Assembly: GCF_944324995.1 (NCBI RefSeq)
Contig: NZ_CALUYL010000011.1
Location: 16,032-80,031 of the forward strand
Source: an uncultured Mailhella sp.
GTDB lineage: Bacteria > Desulfobacterota > Desulfovibrionia > Desulfovibrionales > Desulfovibrionaceae
DNA: 64,000 bases
Direction of reading: 5' to 3'
Position numbers and translations under genes: made by a program. Below, in pieces: positions 10,212 to 23,579 of this stretch. The notes below the pieces were generated by a model. The model saw only the letters and a list, made by a program, of their open reading frames with translations. It did not search any database and was not told the origin of the DNA. Position 1 is the first letter of the stretch, and the number at the start of each line of letters is the position of its first letter.

Positions 10212-11297
10212 TCAGTCCCCTCCGAGGAAACTTCCGAGCAATCCGCCCAGGGCAATATCCCGCCCGGGCGTGGCAAAAAGCTCCCTTCCGACGCCGCGAG
10301 TCACAGGCGAGGCGGCCATCTTTGCCATGGCCCCGCCGCCAATGATCATCGGAACGGCCTCGGCGGCTCCGCCTTCAAAAAGCGCCATCCTTTTTTCCAG
10401 AGCCGTTTCAGGAACAGGAAGGCCGAAAAAGTCCGATATCGTCTTTCCCGGATCGGAAAGGCCCAGCGTCGCCCCGCGGCCCAGGCCTTCAAGCACGTTG
10501 CGCGTGCCGAGGCCGAGGCCGCGCGTCATCTCATCCATGACGTTCCGCCATGAAGAACCACCGTCCCGAGCGTCGTTTGTCTGAGCAGCCTGTGCTTCGC
10601 CCGGAGCGAGCGCGGCGGCCGTTCCACCGGCAAAAAGCGGCAGCATCCCCTTGCGGAGCGCGTCAATTTCTGGTATGTTGGATTCAGTGGAAACGCCGTC
10701 AGCAGAGAGCGCTTGCTGCGTGGCCCCTCCCTCCGGGGAGTGTGAGGTATGAGGATGGAAGGCGGAACCATCCGGCGTTTCCCAGGAACGGCTCTTCATC
10801 TTGAGGAGCCGTTTGTTGTCTACGGGATTCACCTGATGCAGATAGGTAAATTCTTCAGAAGGACGCAAAGAACCTCTCACTCCTGTTCTGCTCCCTAAAG
10901 CTCCAATGCTTTCAGCATAGGGTTTATTTGCCCGCACATAGAATCTGCCCTTACCGGTAGTTAGAGACTCAACAAGATCTTCTATCTCTTCATTGGACAT
11001 GTGCCCGTGTCTGGCATCCCAATAGTGTTGAATATTATTCCTGCTAGCGGCCAAATTTCGAGTATGGAAGGCACCATTCTCTTCCCTTGCTGCCTTGAAG
11101 ACGTCTTTCGGCAATCGTTCCTGAAACTCGAACACCGGCTCATTAATGGGCAACGCGCCTTTTGACGCCTTTTCAAAAAGGTTCAGCAAGCGCCGCCCAT
11201 CCTTGGAATAGACCGCCGCTTCCGCGTCATCCGGGGCGAGGGCCGCCCATCCTGCCATCAGCCCCAGAAGACCGCCGAGCTTTTTCCCATCCACCAT
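10212..11297 (-). CDS. Candidate virion-delivered effector, intact member of the cargo array, 361 aa
   Basis: The start at 11297 forms TGATG with the stop of the preceding small gene. N-terminal residues 5-16 are KKLGGLLGLMAG, followed by a hydrophobic stretch ending APDDAEA. Residues about 45-180 form a compact domain with H and E/D-rich motifs (NNIQHYWDARHG, GRFYVRANKPYAES, FTYLHQVN) that could be a small nuclease or other toxin fold; the family was not identified. A linker present in all truncated cassettes follows (about 180-240), then a WRNVMDEMTRG block with SDPGKTISDFFGLP, and the C-terminus IALGGLLGSFLGGD. Local GC in the middle domain is lower than in its neighbours, which suggests acquisition. 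Delivery and toxicity are inferred. Confidence 0.65.
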   Translation of the reverse strand: MVDGKKLGGLLGLMAGWAALAPDDAEAAVYSKDGRRLLNLFEKASKGALPINEPVFEFQERLPKDVFKAAREENGAFHTRNLAASRNNIQHYWDARHGHMSNEEIEDLVESLTTGKGRFYVRANKPYAESIGALGSRTGVRGSLRPSEEFTYLHQVNPVDNKRLLKMKSRSWETPDGSAFHPHTSHSPEGGATQQALSADGVSTESNIPEIDALRKGMLPLFAGGTAAALAPGEAQAAQTNDARDGGSSWRNVMDEMTRGLGLGTRNVLEGLGRGATLGLSDPGKTISDFFGLPVPETALEKRMALFEGGAAEAVPMIIGGGAMAKMAASPVTRGVGRELFATPGRDIALGGLLGSFLGGD

Positions 11298-11617
11298 CAC
11301 ACTCTCTCCAACGTCGTGCGGAAGGCACGGTTGTCAGGATCATTCAAAAATTTCCGCATAGCCTCGGGGTCGTTCAGAATATCCAGGCCCTGAGCGGCGG
11401 CGATGTCCACCACAGTCACGGGAATGGACGCCACCTTGCGGAACGTGGGAGCCTTCTGGAAACCGCATCTCTGAATGTTCTGCTCCGCCCTGTTCTGCCG
11501 GATGATCTCCGTCACGTCCTGAGCGCGGGAAATGATTCCCTCTTCCGTCACGAAGTCGGAAACGCCGTCCGCGTAAGCAAAGCGCACGCCGCGCACTCCC
11601 TGCGAAAGTTCAAGCAT
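11297..11617 (-). CDS. Array small protein, copy 1 (ends TTLERV), 106 aa
   Basis: Starts MLELSQGVRGV after a good AAAGGAGG site and ends RAFRTTLERV, with its stop overlapping the start of the effector gene (TGATG). A near-identical copy at 15346-15666 is similarly coupled to the next effector gene, and a third 3' remnant is fused to the end of the mosaic pseudogene at 13559-15346. A Cys (QRCGFQ or QKCGFQ) and FLNDPDNRAFRTT are conserved between copies. No family was recognised. It could be a virion adaptor or loading protein, a chaperone, or an immunity factor; the coupling suggests it works with the effector. Confidence 0.7.
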   Translation of the reverse strand: MLELSQGVRGVRFAYADGVSDFVTEEGIISRAQDVTEIIRQNRAEQNIQRCGFQKAPTFRKVASIPVTVVDIAAAQGLDILNDPEAMRKFLNDPDNRAFRTTLERV

Positions 11618-11692
11618 GAAAACCTCCTTTTTTCCGAAGCGTAGCAGAGCCCGGCCGCGCGGCACACGGGACATATTCTTAAAGGCACGACG

Positions 11693-11728
11693 CAAAAAAA
11701 ATGGGCGCGGAAACCATGTTCTGCGCCC
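11693..11728 (-). terminator. Terminator upstream of array small gene 1
   Basis: A GGGCGC/GCGCCC stem (11723-11728 / 11703-11708), then A and at least seven T on the minus strand. A near-identical copy lies at 15743-15778 in the same position relative to the second array small gene, so transcription of each effector unit probably starts afresh in the about 80 bp between terminator and gene. Confidence 0.75.
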
Positions 11729-11779
11729 GCTCTCAACGCACCTTCGTCCAGCTCTCTCCTCCCGCCTCTTTGTCCCGCC

Positions 11780-12360
11780 CGCAGGGCCCGCAAAAAAAAA
11801 TGGCGGCAGCCCCTTGCGGAGCGCGTCAATTTCTGGTATGTTGGACTCAATGGAAACGCCGTCAGCAGAGAGCGCTTGCTGCGTGGCCCCTCCCTCCGGG
11901 GAGTGTGAGGTATTAGGGTGGAAGGCGGAACCATCCGGCGTTTCCCAGAAACGGCTCTTCATCTTGAGGAGCCGTTTATTGTTTACGGGATGCACCTGGT
12001 GGAGACACGTTATTTCCTCTGATGGGAAGCCCCAATCCCCCGAAATACTTCCCCATGTGCCCACGCTTTCAGCACATGTTTCATTCGCACGCCCATAAAC
12101 ATTCCGCCCGCCTTGATGCGTCGCCCGCAGCCCCCGCCAAAAAAACGGCGGCAGCCCCTTGCGGAGCGCGTCAATCTCTGGTATGTTGGACTCAGTGGAA
12201 ACGCCGTCAGCAGAGAGCGCTCGCTGCGTGGCCCCTCCCTCCGGGGAGTGTGAGGTATGAGGATGGAAGGCGGAACCATCCGGCGTTTCCCAGAAACGGC
12301 TCTTCATCTTGAGGAGCCGTTTATTGTTTATGAGGTTCACCAGACTCGGCGGCTAAGTCC
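11780..12360 (-). pseudogene. Two truncated effector cassettes
   Basis: Two head-to-tail copies (about 11790-12110 and 12130-12345) of the segment that in the intact gene 10212-11297 covers the end of the central domain and the linker. Translated, they contain MKSRFWETPDGSAFHP, SHSPEGGATQ and ESNIPEIDALRKG, matching the intact protein. The first copy also retains a diverged form of GRFYVRAN…AES…FPSEE…LHQV. They lack the N-terminal half of the domain and have no start signals. Both read in one long minus-strand frame (11297-12340), which is a by-product of the repeats. They look like orphan C-terminal cassettes left by recombination. Confidence 0.7.
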
Positions 12361-12400
12361 GCCACGTCCACCAGCGGCGTTTCCAGCCCTGGTTCGCGAT

Positions 12401-13559
12401 TCACATGGCCGGCTCATTGACGGGAAAACGATACTGGTCGGCAGGCACGGAAGCGGAAGCTTCACCCGGAGCGAGCGCTGCGGTCGTTCCTGCCCCGCCC
12501 GCAGCCCACGGCAATGTTCTGTAAATATTCGGATCGTCTGGGTTGAATGTGCCGCGATTCTGGACTGACTTGATCTGGTTCGGCTCTTTGACCATCCAAT
12601 AGCCTTTATCAGGCACATGGACATAATCCAGTTCCTGAACCGGCTGCCCGGCACGACGCGCCGCACGTTTTTCCGGCAGTCCATACGTTCCTTTCAGATA
12701 GACATCCATCTGATGCGGGCTGTAAGGCGCGGGCTTTTCGGCAAAATAAAAGCCTTCGCCATAAACGCCCAGACTGTTTATCTTGTCTTTGGAAAAAAAC
12801 ATCAAAAACGGCGTCTGTATTGTGGTGAACGACAAGAGGTCTGCCTTCATCATCAACCACTTTGGAAGAGCGCTTGACATCATCAAGCTTTTGCCCCCAA
12901 AGTAATCGTGAGGCTTGGGGTGCGCTGCCGTTGGCAGTCTTGAACGCATCTTCGAGCCTCTTTTTATTTTCCACCTCATGCAGATAAACTCCCTGCCTGT
13001 CTTTACCGCTTTTTACAACAACTTCCCCGGCGTAATCCGTATCGCCGATACGCATGGGCGCGGATATCACCGACGTGTCGTACTCTCTCCCTTTCCAGTT
13101 GCTTTGCCGGTCAAACACCGTTCCTTTTCTGATGATATCCGGCACGGCAGCGAACGCGGCCGACTTTTCCCTGCCTATACCGTGCCCCATCGAATCTTTG
13201 ACGCCTTCAAGGTCAAGGCTCACGTCTCCAGGCTCCGGACTTCGCACCGCCCCTCGGAACATCTCGTCATACCATGCTGGAACTTTTTCCGTCAGCGGCA
13301 CTCCATCCTTCTGAAATTCTTTTCCGGTCAACGTCACTACCGGTCTCCCGGATACGGCTTCATTACAGGCTCTTGCCGCAGGCCAGTTCCCAAACCAGGC
13401 CTTGAAAAACGGGCTTTCCGTGCCCATATCGCGGTACAGTTCCCCGGCCGCTTCCACTATCTCGGGATTATCCGCCCACCCTTTGGGCAAATCGTTGTAG
13501 TCGAGGCTGTCGGCAAACTTTCCGAGCAGCCCCATGAAGTTCTGCGGTATCTTCGCCAT
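12401..13559 (-). pseudogene. LPD3/ADP-ribosyltransferase-type effector, copy 2, frameshifted
   Basis: Starts at 13559 (MAKIPQNFMGLLGKF), forming TGATG with the upstream stop. The N-terminal part has a 'large polyvalent protein' pattern (FFKAWFGNW…, then KDSMGHGIGREK…SAPMRIGDTDYAGEVVVK…GVYLHEVENKKR, like LPD3). An ADP-ribosyltransferase-like segment follows (VVDDEGRPLVVHHNTDAVFDVF). The frame breaks at a run of seven T on the coding strand (12793-12799). The rest (FSKDKINSLGVYGEGFYFAEKP…YSPHQMDVYLKG…) continues in the +1 frame to a stop at 12401. Removing one T restores a full ART-like domain ending in QNRGTFNPDDPNIY. Either a pseudogene, a phase-variable gene or a frameshifting gene. Confidence 0.65.
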
Positions 13560-15346
13560 CACACCCTCTCCAGCGTCGTGCGGAAGGCACGGTTGTCAGG
13601 ATCATTCAGGAACCTGCGCATGGCCTCGGGGTCGTTCAGAATGTCCAGTCCCTGCGCGGCGGCAATGTCCCTCCGAGGAGTCGAAGCAAGTTCCCTGTCC
13701 ACGCCCCGCGTCCCAGCCCTTCCAGCATGTTGCGCGTCCGAGGCCGCGCTTGAACTCGTCCCAGGACGACGGTTCTTCAGGGCAGAATCCATGCCTTCTG
13801 CTCTGCCAGAGTCGAACAAAGGCAACATGCCCCCGCCACCTGTGACCAGCATTTTATTCTTGCGCCATGCGTCAAGGCCGCGTATAGTATTCTCAAAAGA
13901 CGGGTTATTGACAGCAGAAAGGGTCCCGCTGCCAATGCTCTTCGAGCGCTCCCCCAATGAGGGAGTAAAGATGGAGGAAGTCGACCCGCCCTCCCAATAG
14001 CCCTTGTCTTTCAAAAGTCTTTCGACTTTAGAGGCTTCAGGATTATACAGCGTTATACTCTTGAAGCCTTTTTTGTCAGGAAGGCCGAAAAAGTCCGATA
14101 TCGTCTTTCCCGGATCGGAAAGGCCCAGCGTCGCCCCGCGTCCCAGCCCTTCCAGCATGTTGCGCGTGCCGGGGCCGCGCGTCATCTCATCCATGACGTT
14201 CCGCCACGGTGCACCATCACCGAATTCACCCTTCTGCGCCGCCTGCGCCTCACCCGGGGCAAACGCCGCAGCGGTTCCTGCTCCTCCCATAGCCCTTGGG
14301 AGCGCCTTATAAATATTCGGATCGTCAGGGTTGAATGTGCCGCGATTCTGGACGGACTTGATCTGGTTCGGCTCTTTTACCATCCAATAGCCTTCGTCAG
14401 GCACATGGACATAATCCAGTTCCTGAGCCGGCTGCCCGGCACGACGCGCCGCACGTTTTTCCGGCAGTCCATACGTTCCTTTCAGATAGACATCCATCTG
14501 ATGCGGGCTGTAAGGCGCGGGCTTTTCGGCAAAATAAAAGCCTTCGCCATAAACGCCCAGACTGTTTATCTTGTCTTTGGAAAAAAACATCAAAAACGGC
14601 GTCTGTATTGTGGTGAACGACAAGAGGTCTGCCTTCATCATCAACCACTTTGGAAGAGCGCTTGACATCATCAAGCTTTTGCCCCCAAAGTAATCGTGAG
14701 GCTTGGGGTGCGCTGCCGTTGGCAGTCTTGAACGCATCTTCGAGCCTCTTTTTATTTTCCACCTCATGCAGATAAACTCCCTGCCTGTCTTTACCGCTTT
14801 TTACAACAACTTCCCCGGCGTAATCCGTATCGCCGATACGCATGGGCGCGGATATCACCGACGTGTCGTACCCTCTCCCTTTCCAGTTGCTTTGCCGGTC
14901 AAACACCGTTCCTCTTCTGATGATATCCGGCACGGCAGCGAACGCGGCCGACTTTTCCCTGCCTATACCGTGCCCCATCGAGTCTTTGACGCCTTCAAAG
15001 TCAAGGCTCACGTCTCCAGGCTCCGGGCTTCGCACCGCCCCCCGGAACATCTCGTCATACCATGCCGGAACTTTTTCCGTCAGCGGCATTCCATCCTTCT
15101 GAAATTCTTTTCCGGTCAACGTCACTACCGGCTCCCCGAATACTGCTTCATTACAGGCTTTTGCCGCAGGCCAGTTCCCAAAACAGGCCTTGAAAAACGG
15201 ACTTCCCGTGCCCATATCGCGGTACAGTTCCCCGGCCGCTTCCACTATCTCGGGATTATCCGCCCATCCTTTGGGCAAATCGTTGCAGTCGAGGCTGTCG
15301 GCAAACTTTCCGAGCAGCCCATAAGTTTCTGCGGTATCTTCGCCAT
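13559..15346 (-). pseudogene. LPD3/ADP-ribosyltransferase effector copy 1, frameshifted mosaic
   Basis: Very close to copy 2 over about 950 bp. It starts at 15346 (TGATG with the small gene) but has a 1-nt loss in a G-run at about codon 10 as well as the same frame break at seven T (14581-14587). Downstream, the +1 frame runs to 13559 and is a mosaic: the ART C-terminal half, an APGEAQA linker, the WRNVMDEMTRG…SDPGKTISDFFGLP block, and the C-terminal half of the domain found in the gene at 25781-26671 (YNPEASKVERLLKDKGYWEGG). A decayed second WRN-like block and the last about 35 codons of the array small gene (…RAFRTTLERV) follow. Two frame disruptions make a functional full-length product unlikely. 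Confidence 0.65.
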
Positions 15347-15666
15347 CACACCCTCTCCAGCGTCGTGCGGAAGGCACGGTTGTCAGGATCGTTCAGGAAC
15401 CTGCGCATGGCGTCCGGGTCATTGAGAATGTCCAGTCCCTGCGCGGCGGCAATGTCCACCACGGCCACGGGTATGGACGCAACCTTGCGGAACGTAGGCG
15501 CTTTTTGAAAGCCGCACTTCTGTGCGTTCTGCTCCGCCCTGTTCTGCCGAATGATCTCCGTCACGTCCTGAGCGCGGGAAATGATTCCCTCTTCCGTCAC
15601 GAAGTCGGAAACACCGTCCGCGCAGGCAAAGCGCACACCGCGCACGCCCTGCGAAAGTTCAAGCAT
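15346..15666 (-). CDS. Array small protein, copy 2 (ends TTLERV), 106 aa
   Basis: Differs from copy 1 (11297-11617) at only a handful of residues over its whole length, and has the same AAAGGAGG-type ribosome-binding site, the same upstream terminator and the same TGATG coupling to a downstream effector gene. It is an intact frame although the effector gene behind it is broken. Function unknown; see copy 1. Confidence 0.7.
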   Translation of the reverse strand: MLELSQGVRGVRFACADGVSDFVTEEGIISRAQDVTEIIRQNRAEQNAQKCGFQKAPTFRKVASIPVAVVDIAAAQGLDILNDPDAMRRFLNDPDNRAFRTTLERV

Positions 15667-15742
15667 GAAAGCCTCCTTTTTCCCGAAGCGTAGCAGAGCC
15701 CGGCCGCGCGGCACACGGGACACATTCCCAAAGGCACGGCGC

Positions 15743-15778
15743 AAAAAAAACGGGCGCGGAAACCATGTTCTGCGCCCG
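15743..15778 (-). terminator. Terminator upstream of array small gene 2
   Basis: Stem CGGGCGC/GCGCCCG (15751-15757 / 15772-15778) followed on the minus strand by eight T. It is a near-identical copy of the terminator at 11693-11728. Confidence 0.75.
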
Positions 15779-15844
15779 CTCTCAACGCCCCCTTCGTCCA
15801 GATCTCTCCTCCCGCCTCTTTGTACCGCCCGCAGGGCCCGCCAA

Positions 15845-16050
15845 AAACAGCGGCAGCCCCTTGCGGAGCGCGTCAATCTCTGGTATGTTGGACTCAATGG
15901 AAACGCCGTCAGCAGAGACACGCTCGCTGCGTATTCCGTGCACATTTTGTGTATCGGTCAAAGGATGGAAGGCGGAACCATCCGGCGTTTCCCAGGAACG
16001 GCTCTTCATCTTGAGGAGCCGTTTATTGTTTATGGGGTTCACCAGACTCG
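15845..16050 (-). pseudogene. Truncated effector cassette (linker copy)
   Basis: A further copy of the linker segment (SRSWETPDGSAFHP, ERVSADGVSIESNIPEIDALRKG). The SHSPEGGATQ part is replaced by a different short sequence (TDTQNVHGIRS). No start signal and no N-terminal domain. It is flanked on the left by the remnant at 16106-16440 and on the right by the terminator at 15743-15778. Confidence 0.65.
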
Positions 16051-17175: not shown

Positions 17176-17215
17176 ACAACAAAGCCCCCAGGGGAACTGC
17201 CATTCTCCTGGGGGC
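17176..17215 (-). terminator. Terminator of the tail-fibre/radical-SAM operon
   Basis: A 9-bp perfect stem (GCCCCCAGG 17184-17192 / CCTGGGGGC 17207-17215) with a 14-nt loop, followed on the minus strand by TTTGTTGT. It lies about 75 bp past the stop of the last operon gene (17291), separating it from the effector array. Confidence 0.85.
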
Positions 17216-17290: not shown

Positions 17291-18232
17291 CTAATGCGCA
17301 CTTTTCAGGGAAGCGTCGAGAATCGGCCGCCATGCCTTCCACGCCATGCCGAGAATCAGCAGCGCGAACGCCACGCGGAACACGCCCGCCCTGCTCCACA
17401 GCTCGATGATGCCGATATGGGCGAACACGCCCCAAAAGGAGCAGATCAGAAGCGCGACCACGGTTCCGACCTTCCTGTTGCTGATTTCGTGCAGGGCCAC
17501 GGCAATGGAATCTATGGTGGAGCTCGTCACGCAGAGCACCGCGACAAGCAGAACAAGATTCATGCCCGTGGTGAACTGCAGCTGCGCCATGACGAGCACG
17601 AGCAGCATGTACAGCCCGAAAAAGAAGCTCCCCCAGAAGAACGCCGTGCCGCGTCCCGTCACTTCCGCCCGCTGCCAGTGCTGCACGTCGCCTATCGGCC
17701 CCGAAAGCAGTATGCACGCGCTCCACAGGCCCCAGAGCATGTCGTCGGAGGAACTTTCGGGAAACGCGATGCGCGGAACATCCTGCCACAGCCCCATGCC
17801 GATGATGACCACAATGGCCAGCATGGTCATGCCCCACTGCCAGCAGTCCGTCCAGATGGACGCGGAGAGGCCGTGCCGGTACATGGCAAGGGTGAACGCC
17901 CAGCCCACGGCCGCGGCGGCAAGAGAGGCTCCGCCTTCCGGAACGCCCATGTCCCTGAGCACCATGAACAGGATGTTCATCTGAATGACGAGGCAGAAGC
18001 ACTGGATGACCAGCGCCATGACTTTTATCCCGGGGCGGTCGAAGACATGCCGCCCGAGAAGGCCGCAGCGGGCAAGCAGGCCGAAAAACGCCAGCGTGAG
18101 CGTGTTGGCCGCGGCCCAGACGGCCCAGGCTCCAAGACCTTTCTGCTGCGCTATCTGCATGCCCACGATGAGCGAGGTTCCCCACGCCCACGAGGCGGCA
18201 ATGGAGGCTCCTGTTTTTACATCTCTCTGCAT
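17291..18232 (-). CDS. Multi-pass permease (sodium/solute symporter-like), 313 aa
   Basis: The start at 18232 (MQRDVKTGASIAASW) has a perfect AGGAGG site that overlaps the stop of the upstream gene; the longer frame lacks one. The protein has about nine to ten hydrophobic segments. Segments such as SLIVGMQIAQQKGLGAWAVW, SGPIGDVQHWQRAE (like the 'GD.Q.WQR' region of sodium/solute symporters) and TSSTIDSIAVALHEI suggest an APC/SSS-type transporter shorter than usual. It is the last gene of the operon before the terminator. The substrate is unknown; import of a precursor used by the upstream enzymes is possible but unproven. Confidence 0.65.
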   Translation of the reverse strand: MQRDVKTGASIAASWAWGTSLIVGMQIAQQKGLGAWAVWAAANTLTLAFFGLLARCGLLGRHVFDRPGIKVMALVIQCFCLVIQMNILFMVLRDMGVPEGGASLAAAAVGWAFTLAMYRHGLSASIWTDCWQWGMTMLAIVVIIGMGLWQDVPRIAFPESSSDDMLWGLWSACILLSGPIGDVQHWQRAEVTGRGTAFFWGSFFFGLYMLLVLVMAQLQFTTGMNLVLLVAVLCVTSSTIDSIAVALHEISNRKVGTVVALLICSFWGVFAHIGIIELWSRAGVFRVAFALLILGMAWKAWRPILDASLKSAH

Positions 18233-18242
18233 GGCTGCCTCC

Positions 18243-18938
18243 TCAAACCTTGAGTGAAAACGGATTGTAGGACACGTCGGTGTCATAGGCATCCGCGCCT
18301 TCTTTCTGCTTCACCCAGCGCACCAGTCTGGAAGAAACGGGAAGCGTCATGGTTTCCACCGCCGTTTGAATGAGATAGGTGGTGCAGGCAAAGCCGACGG
18401 CTTCCTTCAGGCTGAGAATGCCGTAGAAGGCGATGACATGAAACACCAGCGCATCCAGCGCCCGCCCGAACACGGAAGAAATGAACGCCCGGCTTTTGAA
18501 GTACCTGCCCCGGCTCAGCAGCTTGAGCCGGGACATGATCCAGGAATTGACCGTGGAACAGGCGACATAGCCGCACAAAATGGCGACGAGTATGCGCGGC
18601 CCCATGCTGAACGCCCTGTCGTACGCCTCCGCCATGCTGCCCATGCAGGAGGCCGCCGGAAGCGCCACGCTCAGCTGAAAAATCCCCACCACGAGAATCG
18701 CCAGAAAAAACGTTATCCACATGACGAAGCGGGCTCTGGCATAGCCGTAAAGCTCGGTGAGGCAGTCGTCGATCACATAGGTGACGATGAACGTGAAAAT
18801 GCCCGTGGTCACATTCAGGCCGAAAGCGTTGACGACTTTTATTTCCAGAAACAGATCAATGATGAAGAAGGTCACGAAGACCGCACAGAAAACCGTATAG
18901 CAGACGGATGTTTTCTGTTCGCAACTGCGCATTTCCAT
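18243..18938 (-). CDS. Queuosine-precursor-transporter (VUT/YhhQ) family membrane protein, 231 aa
   Basis: The start at 18938 is supported by AGGAG 11 nt upstream, inside the end of the preceding gene. The protein has about six membrane helices. The segment VIDDCLTELYGYARARFVMW matches the conserved 'D.ltE.yG...ar..v' signature of the YhhQ/VUT family, whose studied members import queuosine precursors. The family is normally chromosomal. Here it lies between a radical SAM gene and a permease in a prophage operon, with gaps of 8 and 10 bp. Its substrate in this setting is not established; it may take up a precursor for the neighbouring enzymes. Confidence 0.8.
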   Translation of the reverse strand: MEMRSCEQKTSVCYTVFCAVFVTFFIIDLFLEIKVVNAFGLNVTTGIFTFIVTYVIDDCLTELYGYARARFVMWITFFLAILVVGIFQLSVALPAASCMGSMAEAYDRAFSMGPRILVAILCGYVACSTVNSWIMSRLKLLSRGRYFKSRAFISSVFGRALDALVFHVIAFYGILSLKEAVGFACTTYLIQTAVETMTLPVSSRLVRWVKQKEGADAYDTDVSYNPFSLKV

Positions 18939-18946
18939 GAGAACGG

Positions 18947-20002
18947 CTACTCCTGAACCAGATATTCCGTGAGAAGAGCGTGAATCCTGCAATGGGCGGG
19001 ATCCTTGGGCATGCCGTTCCATTCGGAAAGGTCGGAGGTCATGGTGCGCCACGGAATGACGCGGCAGAGATTGTTGCACGTCATGCATCCCTCGGGAATG
19101 CCCTTGGGAAGCTTTGCCAGCAGCGCCGCCCTGTTCTGCTGGATGCTTTCAAAGTCGTCGTCGATGCTGCCGAACTTCAGCAGGTCGGCAACGGCCTTGT
19201 CTTCGAGCGCGGTTTCATAGCCGGGGTACAGGGAGCCGTCATAGTACATGGCCAGATAGACCACGGAATAAAACGTGTCGCTCACACCTTCGCGGCGCAT
19301 TCTTCCCGGCCCGTCGTTGAAGAAGAACGCGTTTTTCAGTTCGGGATGCTCCTGCATGTGCGCCTGTATTCTGGCAAGGGACGCCCGCACCGCGTCTTCG
19401 TCGATGTCGGTGAAGAACGCGCCGAAGCGGTCGATGTTGAACACGGCCATGAGGTCGGGAAGATCCTTGCGGAGTTCGAGGAAGTCAAAAAAGACTTCAT
19501 CCATGCGATGAATGTTCTTCGCGCTGAACACCGATATGGTTTTGTTGGTGAATCCGTTCTTGTACAAAAAGCGGATGTTGTTTCTCACGGTTTCATAGGA
19601 GTCGGCCTTGCGCGTTTCATTCTGAAAGGCGTAGTCGTACGAGACCACGATATAAATCTGACACTGGTTGTCGCTTCTCATTCTGCTGAGAATGTCGATA
19701 TTCTCCTGAGCGAGCGAGCCGTTGGTGATGATATGCACCCGCAGGAGGCAGGGATCGGCCGCGTGCACGAATTCGGCGATGTCGTTCAGGCGCATGAAGG
19801 GTTCGCCGCCGAATATCACCACGACGATGTCCTCTTCGGGCATGACGCTGGTCTTGAGCCATCTGATATACTCCGCAAGGCGGGAAAGATGTTCCACGGA
19901 CACCCTGGTGACTTCCCTGTTCACGGAGGGTTCGCCGTTTTCAAAGCAGTACGAACACTGATAGTTGCAGTAGCTTCCGACATTCACTTCTATCTTTATC
20001 AT
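18947..20002 (-). CDS. Radical SAM protein 2 of the tail-fibre operon, 351 aa
   Basis: The start at 20002 overlaps the upstream stop by 4 bp (ATGA). Cys12, Cys16 and Cys19 form the CxxxCxxC radical SAM motif (CNYQCSYC), followed by the GGEP motif (VIFGGEPFM). The C-terminal region has a cysteine cluster (CMTCNNLC … HCRIHAL) consistent with a reduced SPASM-type auxiliary Fe-S domain. SPASM radical SAM enzymes usually modify peptides (thioether or carbon-carbon crosslinks, epimerisation and related reactions). It differs from the first radical SAM protein, so the two are not a recent duplication. The proposed substrate is the Cys-rich tail-fibre tip, by context. Confidence 0.85.
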   Translation of the reverse strand: MIKIEVNVGSYCNYQCSYCFENGEPSVNREVTRVSVEHLSRLAEYIRWLKTSVMPEEDIVVVIFGGEPFMRLNDIAEFVHAADPCLLRVHIITNGSLAQENIDILSRMRSDNQCQIYIVVSYDYAFQNETRKADSYETVRNNIRFLYKNGFTNKTISVFSAKNIHRMDEVFFDFLELRKDLPDLMAVFNIDRFGAFFTDIDEDAVRASLARIQAHMQEHPELKNAFFFNDGPGRMRREGVSDTFYSVVYLAMYYDGSLYPGYETALEDKAVADLLKFGSIDDDFESIQQNRAALLAKLPKGIPEGCMTCNNLCRVIPWRTMTSDLSEWNGMPKDPAHCRIHALLTEYLVQE

Positions 20003-21120
20003 GCTTGCCTCCGGGCATCGGTTCTCTGATAATCCGAGAGCAGACGTTTCATCATGGCTTCGCGAAGACGCGCGGCCTTCTCGTCATCCTCCGGAAGTTC
20101 CACGCCGGCGGATTCCACGCGCACGCGTTCCGGGCTCTCCATGGCAATGACGCTCACGGGATAGGTCCAAAGCTCCCGGGCGTCTCCCTCGCGCTTCATG
20201 GGCCACGACGCCTGCTTGCCCTTGTGCAGGCGATAGGCCCTGTCGCCGTTGTACGCAAAAATGTAGTCTTTGAGCTGCGCCTTGTAGTGTTCCGTATCCT
20301 GCTGAGGATACTGATGAAGCACGTCAAAATTGGAAACGCTCCAGGCGTTGAATTCGGGAGTGTCGTAAAAGGAAAGCATCCGGCCCGTGAGACGCCCGGT
20401 AAGCATGACGTCGGTGTACTTCACGAAGTCGTACTTGCAGGAGAAATTCATGAACCACAGAAACTCTCCGAGCGTCCGCACCGGAAGTCCATAGTGCCGG
20501 AAGGCCTCCTCGAACTGCCCCACGGCGTCGTCGAAGCCTATCCAGTCGCGCCAGTCGCGGAAATACCAGTCGGGATAATTGTGGTTGATCAGGCTGCCGA
20601 AGAGCTGATCGGCACACCAGCCGGTCAGGGCGTATCCTTTTTCCATCGCCTGCTGCTGCGCCTTGTCCAGAGCCCGCCCCGGAAGCACGAAATGCATGGC
20701 GACGCCCGAGGCGCGCAGATGCTCGAAGAACGCCGGATACTCTTCCACGGAATACTTGGTATAGACGACGTGCAGGCCGCGAAGGCTGCCGCCCGCGTTT
20801 TTCAGCATGGCTATGGTCATGGCCGTGCTGTCCACGCCGCCGGAGCAGAAAAGGTACAGGTCCCGGCCTTCACGGCGGGATTTGTTCCAAAGTTCCGCGG
20901 CCCGCTCGTCCATGACATCCCTGAGGGGCTTCGAGAAGGTCGCCTCGTACATGTTCAGGTGCGGCTCGTACAGGTTGTACGGAGAAAAGCGGTTCAGAAA
21001 GCCGAAACGGTCCCGCAGCGCGTAATATCCCGTTTTGCCCGCAAACACGGAAAGCGCGTCCGTGTGACCGTCGGGCCACGCGAGCATGTGATGAGAAGAA
21101 AGAAGAAAGAGCGTCCGCAT
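19999..21120 (-). CDS. Asparagine-synthetase-like PP-loop ATPase/ligase, 373 aa
   Basis: The start at 21120 (MRTLFLLSSHH) is 2 bp from the upstream stop, with GGAGGC overlapping that gene's end. The PP-loop SGGVDS is at residues 93-98. The segment GYALTGWCADQLFGS resembles the 'GEGADELFGGY' region of AsnB, and FYDTPEFNAW falls where AsnB-like ligases have their substrate-side motif. This points to the adenylating synthetase domain of the asparagine synthetase, beta-lactam synthetase and lasso-cyclase superfamily rather than QueC, whose zinc-binding cysteine cluster is absent. No N-terminal Cys2 glutaminase is evident. It probably activates a carboxylate by adenylation to form an amide; the substrate is unknown. 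Confidence 0.75.
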   Translation of the reverse strand: MRTLFLLSSHHMLAWPDGHTDALSVFAGKTGYYALRDRFGFLNRFSPYNLYEPHLNMYEATFSKPLRDVMDERAAELWNKSRREGRDLYLFCSGGVDSTAMTIAMLKNAGGSLRGLHVVYTKYSVEEYPAFFEHLRASGVAMHFVLPGRALDKAQQQAMEKGYALTGWCADQLFGSLINHNYPDWYFRDWRDWIGFDDAVGQFEEAFRHYGLPVRTLGEFLWFMNFSCKYDFVKYTDVMLTGRLTGRMLSFYDTPEFNAWSVSNFDVLHQYPQQDTEHYKAQLKDYIFAYNGDRAYRLHKGKQASWPMKREGDARELWTYPVSVIAMESPERVRVESAGVELPEDDEKAARLREAMMKRLLSDYQRTDARRQA

Positions 21121-21122
21121 GG

Positions 21123-22337
21123 TCACGCCTCCAGCCTTTTCACGCCAAGAAGCTGGCCGCCCGTGAGCATGTTCACGGCCATGGAAAGCGCAGGGAACCA
21201 CTTGTGCCACTGAATGCGGCAGTTCACCTCGTCGTACTTCTCCGGCGTGCCGAGGCATCCGCCGCCGCAGAACATGCGCATCACGCAGTCCATGCAGGCG
21301 CGCTCGCGCCGACTCTCCAGCACCGCGAGCTTCACGGGCACGCGCGGCCCCTCAAGCGTTCCCATATGCAGATTGCCGCCCCTCTCATCCTCATGTTTTC
21401 CGGCAAAGGAATGACAGGCCCAGACGTTGCCGGTGATGTCCACATTCAAAGAAAGTGCGCCGGGCTGAGCGTTCTGACAGCCGCCGAATCCGCCGGTCCG
21501 CCCCAGGCTTCGGAGAAAACTCTTTGCGGCCTGAACATAGGCATGGGCGAAGCGCCGTCCTCTTCCGATGAAGAGCTCGCGGCAGCAGTCCAGCGAAAAG
21601 GCGTACAGCTCCTTTTCCGAAAGCGCCCACGCGGCGCTCGCCTCATCGCCGACCATGAGCATCTGCACGTCGCCGATGGCCCACTCTTCCGAGCCGAGGC
21701 GCTCATCCATGAAGTCGATGAAGCGGGAGACAAGCGGATTTTTCCTGTGGAACACCGGATTCACCGACCAGTGATGACGGGCCACGCCGTCCTTCAGCGC
21801 CTCAAGCGCAAAGGAACCGGGAGCGAGCACATCGCTTTCGTCTCTCGCACTCTGCCCCGACCCGTCGTAGGAAAAGCCCACGCCGACATGATTGTCGTGC
21901 AGCCAGGCGAGATTTTCCTCGTTGAGCAGCGCGCCGTTCGAGCAGATGCCCAGGAGTGTGCGGGGCTTCACGTCTCTGAGACCGGCGGCGAGTTCCTTCA
22001 TCATGTCGAAATACAAAAGAGGCTCCCCGCCCCAGAACAGGACGCGCGCCGCGTCCACATGGCAAAAATGCCTGTCGCAGTAGTCGCGCACGCCTCTGAC
22101 GAAGGCATCCAGACGGAGCGGAGAGAAGATTTCCTTTTTCATGTCGGCCTGACAGCAGTAGCCGCATCTGTAGTTGCACGCCGTGCCCATGACGATGTTG
22201 ATTCTGAGCTCCTCGCCGTCCCGCTGACCCATGATGAAGTTCGGCGGAACCCCGGCTCCGTCAAGGGTGTTGAGTCTGCTGTCGTAGGCGAGTCTGAGCG
22301 TTCCGGACGCATGTCCGACTTCAAAGACATATTTCAT
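21123..22337 (-). CDS. Radical SAM/SPASM protein 1 of the tail-fibre operon, 404 aa
   Basis: Starts at 22337, 10 bp after the Cys-rich fibre gene stop, with a GAGAAG ribosome-binding site formed from that stop region. Cys54, Cys58 and Cys61 form CNYRCGYC, followed by WGGEP. The C-terminal SPASM domain is complete: Cys in VWACHSF, the CMDCVMRMFCGGGC cluster and a last Cys in VNCRIQ, expected to bind two auxiliary [4Fe-4S] clusters. This is the architecture of peptide maturases such as those for sactipeptides, ranthipeptides and PQQ. Its position directly behind the Cys-rich fibre gene makes the fibre tail the obvious candidate substrate. Confidence 0.88.
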   Translation of the reverse strand: MKYVFEVGHASGTLRLAYDSRLNTLDGAGVPPNFIMGQRDGEELRINIVMGTACNYRCGYCCQADMKKEIFSPLRLDAFVRGVRDYCDRHFCHVDAARVLFWGGEPLLYFDMMKELAAGLRDVKPRTLLGICSNGALLNEENLAWLHDNHVGVGFSYDGSGQSARDESDVLAPGSFALEALKDGVARHHWSVNPVFHRKNPLVSRFIDFMDERLGSEEWAIGDVQMLMVGDEASAAWALSEKELYAFSLDCCRELFIGRGRRFAHAYVQAAKSFLRSLGRTGGFGGCQNAQPGALSLNVDITGNVWACHSFAGKHEDERGGNLHMGTLEGPRVPVKLAVLESRRERACMDCVMRMFCGGGCLGTPEKYDEVNCRIQWHKWFPALSMAVNMLTGGQLLGVKRLEA

Positions 22338-22347
22338 GTTTCACTTC

Positions 22348-22842
22348 TCAACAGTTGCAGTTGCAGTTGGAGGAGGTGCAGCGGCAGTTGCAATACGTGC
22401 AGTAGGAGCAGTAGGTGCACCAGCCGCTGCAATGGGTGCAGTAGGTGCAGTGCGTGTTGGCATCCCCGGGAAGTGTAATATTTCGCGTTGCGGCGGACGT
22501 CACTCTTCCTTTGGCGTCCACGGTAAAGTACGGCACGGTGAAGGTTCCGCCGTGCGCCGGGCTCGCGTTGCCGGTCGGGCCATAGTTTCCGGCGGTCACG
22601 CCGCTTGCGGAGACGCCCGTATTCGCCGTGCTCTGGGCCGCCTGGGCCGCACTTGCGGCTTCATCCGCCGCGCTCTGGGCCGAGCTCACGTCTTTCTGCA
22701 GGGCGTCGCTTTCCGCCTTCACGTCCGCCATGAGCTGACGAAGGGCGTTGTTGAGGCCGGAAGGCGGGCAGCCCTCGGCAATGTTGATGCCCGAAATCGT
22801 GGTGTTCAGATCCGGGTTGGTATTGTAGCTGGATACGGCCAT
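22348..22842 (-). CDS. Short tail fibre with 12-Cys C-terminal tail, candidate modified precursor B, 164 aa
   Basis: Residues 1-47 (MAVSSYNTNPDLNTTISGIN…EGCPP…) form a virion-attachment head of the short tail-fibre type, followed by an Ala/Ser heptad linker (about 48-80) and a shaft segment (FTVPYFTVDAKGRVTSAATR). After ITLPGDANT the usual receptor-binding tip is replaced by a 34-residue tail with 12 Cys (132, 135, 138, 142, 145, 148, 151, 153, 155, 160, 162, 164). It opens HCTYCTHCSGWCTYCSYC and ends NCNCNC. The stop and the following radical SAM start are 10 bp apart. The N-terminal 130 residues are mostly shared with the paralogue at 22856. RiPP-like modification is inferred, not shown. 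Confidence 0.85.
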   Translation of the reverse strand: MAVSSYNTNPDLNTTISGINIAEGCPPSGLNNALRQLMADVKAESDALQKDVSSAQSAADEAASAAQAAQSTANTGVSASGVTAGNYGPTGNASPAHGGTFTVPYFTVDAKGRVTSAATRNITLPGDANTHCTYCTHCSGWCTYCSYCTYCNCRCTSSNCNCNC

Positions 22843-22855
22843 GCCTTAATCTCCT

Positions 22856-23326
22856 TCACAGGCAATACGAAGTGCAGTGCGTGCAGTAGGTGCAGTGCGC
22901 ACACCAGCCGCTGCAATGGGTGCAATAGGTGCAGTGCGTGTTGGCGTCGGCAGGAAGCGTTACGGTTCTTGTTGCGGCAGCCGTTATCCTGCCTTTCGCA
23001 TTCACGGTAAAAAAAGGAACCTGAAAGGACTGCTGATGCCCCGGAGAGACGTTGCCGGGCGGGCCATAGCTTCCGGCGGCCACGCCGCTTGCGGCAACTG
23101 ACGCATCGGCCGTGCTCTGGGCCGCCCGGGCCGCGCTTGCGGCTTCCTCCGCCGAGGTCTTTGCCAGACTCAGCTTTTCCCGCAGAGCGTCGCTTTCGGC
23201 CTTCACGTCCGCCATGAGCTGACGGACGGCGTTGTTCACGCCCGCCGGCGGACAGCCCTCGGCGATGTTGATGCCCGAAATCGTGGTGTTCAGATCCGGG
23301 TTGGCATTGTAGTTTGATACGGCCAT
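22856..23326 (-). CDS. Short tail fibre with 8-Cys C-terminal tail, candidate modified precursor A, 156 aa
   Basis: The start at 23326 follows AGGAGGG; a longer frame to 23656 runs into the terminator region and is not used. Same plan as paralogue B: attachment head, helical linker, shaft (FQVPFFTVNAKGRITAAATR). Its tail has eight Cys at 132, 135, 138, 142, 145, 148, 151 and 155 (HCTYCTHCSGWCAHCTYC, then THCTSYCL). The first about 17 tail residues are almost identical to paralogue B and the rest diverges. It is the first gene of the operon, 13 bp before B, and is separated from the capsid gene by a terminator at 23531-23559. Without enzymes such a tail would be expected to bind metal or form disulfides; with them, thioether crosslinks are plausible. 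Confidence 0.85.
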   Translation of the reverse strand: MAVSNYNANPDLNTTISGINIAEGCPPAGVNNAVRQLMADVKAESDALREKLSLAKTSAEEAASAARAAQSTADASVAASGVAAGSYGPPGNVSPGHQQSFQVPFFTVNAKGRITAAATRTVTLPADANTHCTYCTHCSGWCAHCTYCTHCTSYCL

Positions 23327-23530: not shown

Positions 23531-23559
23531 AAAAAAAGAGCGGCGGGTTTCCCCGCCGC
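23531..23559 (-). terminator. Terminator after the major capsid gene
   Basis: An 8-bp stem (GCGGCGGG/CCCGCCGC) with a 4-nt loop, followed on the minus strand by a C and seven T. It separates the capsid gene from the tail-fibre operon. The about 200 bp between it and 23326 are purine-rich and must hold any promoter for the fibre operon; none is obvious. Confidence 0.8.
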
Positions 23560-23579
23560 CCACATGGAAAAGGACGCCG

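What the first reader, a model, noticed from the sequence alone, without database searches (positions are those of the whole stretch)
17291..23326. Tail-fibre tips as possible RiPP-type substrates: Cys-rich phage fibres coupled to two radical SAM/SPASM enzymes
Seen directly: two short tail-fibre genes whose C-terminal 25-34 residues are Cys/His/Tyr/Trp-rich (8 and 12 Cys), directly followed on the same strand by a complete SPASM radical SAM protein, an AsnB-like PP-loop protein, a second radical SAM protein, a VUT-family transporter and a permease. Junctions are 2-13 bp gaps or 4-bp overlaps, with ribosome-binding sites inside the preceding genes, and terminators lie on both sides (23531-23559 and 17176-17215). 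Known: SPASM radical SAM enzymes mature Cys-containing peptides. Inference: the enzymes crosslink or otherwise modify the fibre tips, so a virion surface would carry RiPP-like structures, perhaps for receptor binding, envelope penetration or metal binding. I know of no described phage with this arrangement.
Basis: partly seen in the sequence, partly recalled or inferred. Interest (0 to 1): 0.95.

Follow-up and report, generated by a model that had tools for sequence, protein, structure and literature searches.

The report
Enzyme-modified Cys tips on phage fibres
A bacterial prophage carries tail-fibre proteins that end in dense cysteine runs beside a radical-SAM enzyme that likely cross-links those runs, and the same pairing recurs in many unrelated phages, so these viruses would carry chemically hardened fibre tips.

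Summary
Two prophage fibre genes end in 8- and 12-Cys tips; a complete SPASM radical SAM gene (rSAM1) starts 10 bp after the second. All four rSAM1 relatives found in the host's phylum, at the limits used, sit beside a Cys-tipped fibre. A tip-first scan of viral contigs found the rSAM family in 85 of 120 stretches against 0 of 118 controls. Where the tip was terminal and at least 5 kb lay downstream, it was 39 of 39, same strand. Tips sit at the C-terminus or just before a Hint-like or Peptidase S74 domain. An undescribed accessory protein recurs in 113 of 199 loci (0 of 118 controls), though not in the window. The nearest solved structure to rSAM1 is the thioether-forming enzyme CteB. Most likely the enzyme installs thioether cross-links in the fibre tip; the chemistry is inferred, not shown. 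The PP-loop protein and second radical SAM protein look like a second fibre-linked module; VUT and the permease remain unassigned. Ten literature searches showed no description of this. Verdict: real, recurrent and very interesting.

The parts
22856..23326 (-). fibre 1, 156 aa, Cys-tipped tail-fibre protein
22859..22939 (-). tip 1, last 27 residues, 8 Cys mostly in CxxC spacing with Tyr/His/Trp before Cys
22348..22842 (-). fibre 2, 164 aa, 72% identical to fibre 1
22351..22455 (-). tip 2, last 35 residues, 12 Cys: a CxxC run, then an NCNCNC end
21123..22337 (-). rSAM1, 404 aa radical SAM/SPASM protein (matches phrog_1802), predicted fibre-tip maturase
22155..22178 (-). CX3CX2C radical SAM motif of rSAM1 (Cys 54, 58, 61; kept in 127 of 127 aligned sequences)
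21219..21479 (-). SPASM seven-Cys region of rSAM1 (Cys 287, 308, 348, 351, 357, 361, 373)
19999..21120 (-). PP-loop (AsnB-like) protein of an orphan family, SGGVDS motif
18947..20002 (-). rSAM2, 351 aa, radical SAM with four C-terminal Cys kept in 3 of 3 aligned
18243..18938 (-). VUT/QueT-like transporter (TIGR00697, PF02592); role here unknown
17291..18232 (-). permease-like membrane protein; role here unknown
23538..23561 (-). terminator-like site between the major head gene and the fibre operon
17183..17198 (-). weak terminator-like site after the permease

Best explanation
The cysteine run at the end of each tail-fibre protein is likely the substrate of the SPASM radical SAM enzyme encoded directly downstream, which is predicted to tie it with thioether cross-links before the fibre is built into the virion. 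Shown: the anatomy, the conserved enzyme, and the coupling of tip and enzyme in many phages. Inferred: the fibre body works like a RiPP leader and the C-terminal tip like a core; the enzyme pulls a hydrogen from a residue next to a Cys (Asn or Asp in the common NC-type tips, Thr/Ser/Tyr/His in the window's CxxC tips) and the Cys sulfur closes on that carbon, giving a small rigid knob at the distal end of the fibre. In relatives, Hint or Peptidase S74 domains just after the tip would cut themselves off and leave the tip at the exact C-terminus. The knob would serve receptor contact or stability outside the cell. The PP-loop protein (likely carboxylate-activating, by a weak fold match) and rSAM2 would add a second modification to fibre tips.
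For: Own family: 3 of 199 genomes have an rSAM1 relative at E<=1e-20, and all three lie beside Cys-tipped fibres: the window, G191 (fibre with NCNCNCDC then a Hint-like domain) and G146 (unrelated fibre body, CxxC tip). A phylum search of 395 genomes gave 3 at E<=1e-40; its one new genome, G434, has tip, accessory and rSAM in a row. Tip-first: 85 of 120 stretches with an NCNCxCNCxC pattern hold the rSAM, control 0 of 118. Of 100 in-frame terminal or Hint tips, 80 have it, and 39 of 39 with at least 5 kb downstream, same strand; these are 33, 22 and 11 rSAM clusters at 90, 70 and 50% identity. rSAM-first: 52 of 55 loci with at least 4 kb upstream have a tip by a loose rule, 40 of 55 strict. All ten catalytic and SPASM Cys are kept in 126-127 of 127. 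Closest solved enzyme by sequence and fold is CteB (8.6e-18 and 5e-14); closest curated model is PapB, a ranthipeptide maturase, for 4 of the 5 phage rSAMs tested. Tips: the residue between Cys in CxC is Asn 53%, Asp 14% of 430, and Asn is a known ranthipeptide acceptor (NxxcA; passage of PMC8326336). Of 120 fibre homologues held, 9 have terminal Cys tips, among them the eight closest; they keep dense Cys while other tip letters change.
Against: No chemistry is shown by any search. Similarity to CteB and PapB is far below curated cut-offs (73.1 against 340 bits for PapB), and anSME, a formylglycine enzyme, is almost as close in fold (4e-11). The rSAM1 model has only an N-terminal beta hairpin, no full leader-binding RRE domain. 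The CxxC-pattern scan found the rSAM in only 3 of 120 stretches; most in-frame matches look like repeat DNA. 15 of 55 rSAM loci fail the strict tip rule and 3 of 55 the loose one. Among the 39 tip-first loci at least four (L237, L239, L244, L315) match the rSAM profile only at 106-162 bits. One internal, repeat-like NCNC frame with over 5 kb downstream (L254) has no rSAM. The NC pattern was chosen after seeing tips in enzyme-first loci. Campylobacter phage CP220 has a distant relative whose next-upstream gene ends without a Cys run. The window lacks the accessory protein found in 113 of 199 loci.
Confidence: 0.62

Rival explanations
1. The radical SAM enzyme acts on the tip but with other chemistry: Cys to formylglycine (as anSME), epimerisation, or carbon-carbon cyclophanes with the Tyr/His/Trp residues.
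For: anSME structures are the second-best fold group (4e-11) and anSME is among the best solved sequence matches (7e-12); in an eight-tip set of window-like CxxC tips, Tyr or His stands before Cys at 46 of 51 positions.
Against: Most positions inside the viral CxC runs are Asn, Asp or Ala, not aromatic. What is conserved is Cys density and spacing, which suits repeated sulfur bridges. CteB and PapB rank above anSME.
Confidence: 0.2
2. The Cys run binds metal (Fe, Zn or an Fe-S cluster) in the trimeric fibre tip, like the HxH iron sites of T4 gp37, and the radical SAM enzyme does something else.
For: CxC and CxxC are classic metal ligands (recalled); HxH iron-binding motifs in phage tail fibres are in print (passages of PMC11705849).
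Against: Metal binding alone would not need an enzyme, yet terminal NC-type tips were not seen without it where at least 5 kb downstream was held (39 of 39). A mixed case, modified tips that also bind metal, is not excluded.
Confidence: 0.1
3. The enzymes are auxiliary metabolic genes that merely sit in the hypervariable host-recognition region of phage genomes.
For: Published readings: radical SAM cassettes in a pelagimyophage host-recognition cluster (passages of PMC7029224) and 11-12 radical SAM proteins in two Campylobacter phages read as metabolic (passages of PMC2853527).
Against: The coupling is to one peptide motif, not to the region: 85 of 120 against 0 of 118, same strand 39 of 39, with a recurrent accessory gene. 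The controls were not restricted to host-recognition regions.
Confidence: 0.04
4. PP-loop, rSAM2 and VUT form a 7-deazaguanine (queuosine-like) uptake or DNA-modification set unrelated to the tips.
For: VUT passes the queuosine-precursor transporter model; the PP-loop protein has weak QueC matches (PADLOC 1.3e-4; PHROG QueC-like 7.5e-6 for its L025 relative).
Against: Pfam QueC is below cut-off (12.9 against 22). The PP-loop fold is nearest carbapenam and asparagine synthetases (weak, 3e-4). In G127 the PP-loop and rSAM2 genes are duplicated, each set beside fibre genes, one without VUT. PP-loop relatives occur in 4 of 196 tip/rSAM loci and 0 of 118 controls.
Confidence: 0.2

Closest known systems
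Ranthipeptide/SCIFF maturases PapB and CteB (SPASM radical SAM)
   Same: radical SAM core plus full SPASM seven-Cys pattern; Cys-dense C-terminal substrate encoded next door; best curated-model, fold and solved-sequence neighbours
   Different: substrate would be a phage tail fibre, not a small peptide; no clear RRE domain; scores far below the family cut-offs
Sactipeptides with CxxC-spaced Cys (thurincin H)
   Same: several Cys with three-residue spacing in one short segment (the thurincin H spacing is recalled, not from a call)
   Different: fused to a fibre rather than a secreted peptide; no acceptor segment outside the run has been identified
QhpD maturation of quinohemoprotein amine dehydrogenase
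   Same: radical SAM enzyme that puts thioether links into a protein that is not a RiPP (passage of PMC8326336); TIGR03906 matches rSAM1 at 8e-17
   Different: substrate is an enzyme subunit, not a virion part; below cut-off (61 against 453)
T4 gp37 and HxH iron-binding fibre tips
   Same: chemically special part of a phage fibre (PMC11705849 passages)
   Different: His and metal rather than Cys and a modifying enzyme
Peptidase S74 and Hint self-cleaving fibre domains
   Same: found directly after the tip in relatives
   Different: known for fibre folding or splicing (recalled); not known to expose an enzyme-modified tip; absent from the window's fibres

Membership tests
Radical SAM/SPASM proteins (TIGR04085) | CX3CX2C plus seven-Cys SPASM motif (CX9-15GX4C...CX2CX5CX3C...C; pattern recalled) | tested here: met
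   31.0 against 27 bits; Cys 54, 58, 61, 287, 308, 348, 351, 357, 361, 373 kept in 126-127 of 127
PapB ranthipeptide maturase (NF047865) | score above curated cut-off 340 | tested here: not met
   73.1 bits
SCIFF maturase CteB (TIGR03974) | score above cut-off 425 | tested here: not met
   49.5 bits, though CteB is the nearest solved structure
SCIFF maturase CteB (TIGR03974) | N-terminal RRE domain binding the leader | tested here: inconclusive
   model shows only strands 3-9, 12-19, 24-26 and a short helix before the core
RiPP | ribosomal precursor with leader and core encoded beside its maturase | tested here: inconclusive
   tips are encoded beside the rSAM gene in the window and relatives; that the fibre body acts as leader is inferred
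RiPP | post-translational modification of the core demonstrated | not testable with these tools
   needs mass spectrometry
Phage tail fibre | sequence homology to fibre/collar proteins in a phage structural gene cluster | tested here: met
   of 9 other tip proteins scanned, 5 match tail or tail-fibre PHROGs, and L101 has Mtd_N
Phage tail fibre | present in the virion | not testable with these tools
   needs virion proteomics
Anaerobic sulfatase maturase (TIGR03942) | score above cut-off 349 | tested here: not met
   41 bits
QueC/QueE deazaguanine pathway | PP-loop protein scores as QueC (PF06508, cut-off 22) | tested here: not met
   12.9 bits
Asparagine-synthetase-like PP-loop (PF00733) | score above cut-off 21 | tested here: not met
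   13.5 bits; fold nearest carbapenam/asparagine synthetase at 3e-4
VUT/queuosine precursor transporter (TIGR00697) | score above cut-off 50.95 | tested here: met
   90.9 bits; substrate here unknown

The most novel reading that the evidence does not exclude
A widespread, undescribed phage system: tail fibres of unrelated phages end in a Cys-run core that a dedicated SPASM radical SAM enzyme converts into a thioether-laced, RiPP-like knob, in most loci with a conserved accessory protein. Hint or S74 domains cut themselves away to expose it, and in some phages a PP-loop enzyme and a second radical SAM enzyme add a further tip chemistry. Virion surfaces would carry enzyme-made RiPP-like chemistry for host attachment.
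Probability: 0.6. Interest if true: 0.96.

Novelty: categorically new. Interest (0 to 1): 0.92.

Why it matters
Receptor-binding tips decide which bacterium a phage infects. If tips carry radical-SAM-made cross-links, predictions of fibre structure and receptor binding from sequence alone would be wrong for these phages. Radical SAM genes now read as metabolic cargo (phrog_1802 among them) would be virion-maturation genes, and a large natural set of modified peptides displayed on virions would open for chemistry. The claim is directly testable by mass spectrometry on a cultured phage (Achromobacter phage 2-1, whose fibre, Hint domain and rSAM are).

Tried and rejected
Search of viral contigs with rSAM1 alone found no relative; an alignment was needed. 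The CxxC DNA pattern is a poor probe: of 120 stretches 3 had the rSAM, most in-frame matches looking like repeat DNA. In-frame CxxC runs within 5 residues of an ORF end numbered 5 (L087, L095, L101, L102, L142), of which 2 had the rSAM (L101, L142); the other three look like simple repeats. In the NC-pattern set, 8 of 120 stretches had no in-frame NCNC run, and 12 of 112 in-frame runs were neither terminal nor before a Hint-like domain by the rule and were left out of the 100; of these 12, three had at least 5 kb downstream and two of the three had the rSAM (L251, L289; not L254). PP-loop searches of viral contigs and named phages gave none; the profile later found it in 4 of 196 loci already held, one of which (L032) has only a weak tip. 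rSAM2 is not specially close to the second rSAM proteins of other phages: scores are alike. The genome-contig scan gave 14 weak loci; of the eight inspected (L452-L459), two had tips (L452, L454); six were not inspected. Prophages with the same major head protein: G070 has structural genes after the head gene and no tip, rSAM, PP-loop or accessory; G115, G138 and G177 also have none in the DNA held (one 48-aa frame in G138 met the loose motif, judged spurious), but may be remnants; G199's stretch (1.8 kb) was fetched but not scanned. Defence role: PADLOC matches are only generic viperin-like radical SAM hits and a weak QueC hit. Count flaw: the control range wrongly took in L439, a piece of the window's own genome, so the 13 and 17 of 119 there may each be one too high. 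Loci of the two viral scans overlap in a few contigs (for example L009/L233, L010/L274, L024/L280), and p-values treat loci as independent, which they are not.
Full report
OBSERVATION. The window holds a prophage (terminase, portal, scaffold, major head protein, virion structural and ejection proteins, holin). Between the major head gene and the next structural genes lies a seven-gene operon on the - strand: two short fibre genes, rSAM1, a PP-loop protein, rSAM2, a VUT transporter and a permease-like protein, with gaps of 2-13 bp and one 4-bp overlap. Fibre 1 ends in 27 residues with 8 Cys and fibre 2 in 35 residues with 12 Cys. The two fibres are 72% identical to each other, and fibre 2 is 62% identical to the fibre of a related prophage, G191. 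The N-terminus is shared with many fibre/collar-like proteins.

THE ENZYME. rSAM1 has the CX3CX2C motif and a complete SPASM pattern. Ten Cys are kept in 126 or 127 of 127 distinct sequences (146 before exact duplicates were dropped). It matches PHROG 1802, a phage radical SAM family of category 'other' (1.5e-33). No NCBIfam equivalog cut-off is reached; the closest model is PapB (73.1 against 340 bits), and PapB is also closest for 3 of 4 further phage rSAMs. The nearest solved structures are CteB by sequence (8.6e-18) and by fold (5e-14), then anSME among others. CteB and PapB make thioethers; anSME makes formylglycine (named in the PDB and NCBIfam titles, and established knowledge).

RELATIVES IN THE HOST PHYLUM. 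In 199 genomes of the family, 3 have an rSAM1 relative at E<=1e-20; in 395 genomes of the phylum, 3 at E<=1e-40, one of them new. All four loci carry the tip: the window; G191 (same fibre body, but the end is NCNCNCDC followed by a Hint-like domain, recognised by eye, no Pfam match); G146 (unrelated fibre body beside tail-like genes of another phage type, with a tip like the window's); G434 (short tip QCTQCQCDCNG). In G191, G146 and G434 a 244-300 aa accessory gene stands between fibre and enzyme.

SAME SPECIES, OTHER CLUSTER. G127 carries a fibre cluster with a distant SPASM enzyme (21% identical), two small Cys-tip proteins ending NCNC and CNCDC, three PP-loop genes, two rSAM2 genes, VUT and the permease. 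G155 has fibres, a PP-loop gene and the permease, with no Cys tip seen in the DNA held and no rSAM1 relative at E<=1e-20. In both clusters a fibre in the same gene run as a PP-loop gene ends FSNGTQIWVA or FSNNAELWVS, an ending that recurs among fibre homologues. So the PP-loop/rSAM2 set looks like a second fibre-linked module with its own possible tip type. Equal contig lengths suggest that 5 of the 8 closest rSAM1 relatives (a 99% copy apart) share a contig with a PP-loop relative, two of them also with a Cys-tipped fibre (inferred from equal lengths only).

TEST FROM THE ENZYME SIDE. A scan of viral contigs with four rSAMs gave 72 loci; 71 have an rSAM frame of at least 200 aa, and 55 of these have at least 4 kb upstream. 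A tip is present in 40 of 55 by a strict rule and 52 of 55 by a loose one, against 13 and 17 of 119 control loci (one control was a mistake, see Tried and rejected). 13 of the 52 tips stand before a Hint-like domain by that rule. In Achromobacter phage 2-1 the Hint match passes Pfam's cut-off (46.6 against 32.1); in the five other viral fibres scanned (L012, L020, L026, L046, L048) it is below.

TEST FROM THE TIP SIDE. A DNA pattern for NCNCxCNCxC, chosen after seeing such tips but blind to the enzyme, gave 120 stretches (80 listed). The rSAM profile is present in 85 of 120 (57 of the 80 listed), against 0 of 118 for a matched Asn pattern. Of 112 in-frame runs, 100 are C-terminal or before a Hint-like domain by the rule; 80 of these have the rSAM. 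In 76 of the 80 it begins after the fibre stop, 10-5386 bp away; in 4 it begins before. All 39 with at least 5 kb downstream have it, on the same strand; at least four of them match only at 106-162 bits. The 39 form 33, 22 and 11 clusters at 90, 70 and 50% rSAM identity. By the rule, 100 of the 112 are C-terminal, 5 stand before a Peptidase S74-like sequence, 2 before Hint and 5 before something else; S74 passes its cut-off in both examples tested (22.5 and 32.1 against 22). Three architectures thus share one feature: the Cys run is, or after self-cleavage would be, at the extreme C-terminus. Of 9 tip proteins scanned against PHROGs, 5 match tail or tail-fibre families, one a head-decoration family and three nothing; in L216 and L304 much of the match is the S74 part. 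L101's tip protein has the Mtd receptor-binding N-domain.

A THIRD COMPONENT. A profile seeded from five accessory proteins finds the family in 113 of 199 tip/rSAM loci (the five seed loci included), 0 of 118 controls, and on the rSAM's strand in 99 of 99. It has no PHROG match in five members tested, and no Pfam match above cut-off in any of five tested, one having a weak Ig-like Big_1 match. The window lacks it. PP-loop relatives turn up in 4 of 196 such loci and 0 of 118 controls, in L025 beside a DctP-like protein. A second radical SAM gene is present in 31 of 159 loci.

MECHANISM. The coupling to one peptide motif, across unrelated fibre bodies, argues that the tip is the substrate. CxC tips have Asn 53%, Asp 14% and Ala 14% between Cys (430 positions, 88 unique tips); the window-like CxxC tips have Thr or Ser (42 of 51) then Tyr or His (46 of 51) (eight tips). 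Asn is a known acceptor in the ranthipeptide NxxcA (passage of PMC8326336), so thioethers are my choice, at moderate confidence. Formylglycine, epimerisation, cyclophanes and metal binding remain open.

LITERATURE. Ten full-text searches, seen as listings, showed no paper on radical SAM modification of phage fibres; three listings were capped (15 of 69, 12 of 24, 8 of 9). Passages of PMC7029224 report radical SAM cassettes in the host-recognition cluster of pelagimyophages, and passages of PMC2853527 report 11-12 radical SAM proteins in two Campylobacter phages, read as metabolic. Passages of PMC10783043 mention a radical SAM protein without a fibre link. The radical SAM RiPP review PMC8326336 has no occurrence of a word beginning 'phage'. 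Subscription papers and preprints are not covered.

VERDICT. What the tip becomes is not shown.

Noticed in passing
window 10212-15945: Several ORFs with shared endings (LNDPDNRAFRTTLERV) and shared stretches (LPKGWADNPEIVEAAGELYRDMGT) between the fibre operon and the next structural genes, apparently a decayed repeat array.
   Followed up: no
L448:13663-14463 and L451:2375-3232: Fibres ending in FSNGTQIWVA / FSNNAELWVS in the same gene run as PP-loop genes; the same ending recurs in fibre homologues and may be the substrate motif of the PP-loop/rSAM2 module.
   Followed up: partly
L053:3344-3547, also L060, L062, L068, L075, L076: A 67-71 aa protein ending in CECQCQCACSRGT-like runs, followed by three radical SAM genes; looks like a free-standing viral Cys-run peptide rather than a fibre.
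   Followed up: no
L025:9633-10577, L253:4513-5460: A TRAP-type DctP solute-binding-like protein (PF03480, 150.8 bits in L025) sits inside the tip/rSAM/PP-loop cassette; a protein that looks alike is at L253.
   Followed up: no
L006:11624-12460, L007:13215-14117, L480:2675-3409: Undescribed accessory protein family between fibre and rSAM, found in 113 of 199 tip/rSAM loci.
   Followed up: partly
L101:4275-4637, L142:4009-4371: Cys-tipped 120-aa proteins beside paired rSAM genes; L101 carries the Mtd (major tropism determinant) N-terminal domain (54.5 against 26.3 bits); L142 was not scanned.
   Followed up: partly
window 17291-18232, L448:17861-18847, L450:7857-8978: The permease looks by eye much more alike among three prophages than the neighbouring PP-loop proteins (42-58% identical), which hints at recent exchange of this gene.
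   Followed up: no
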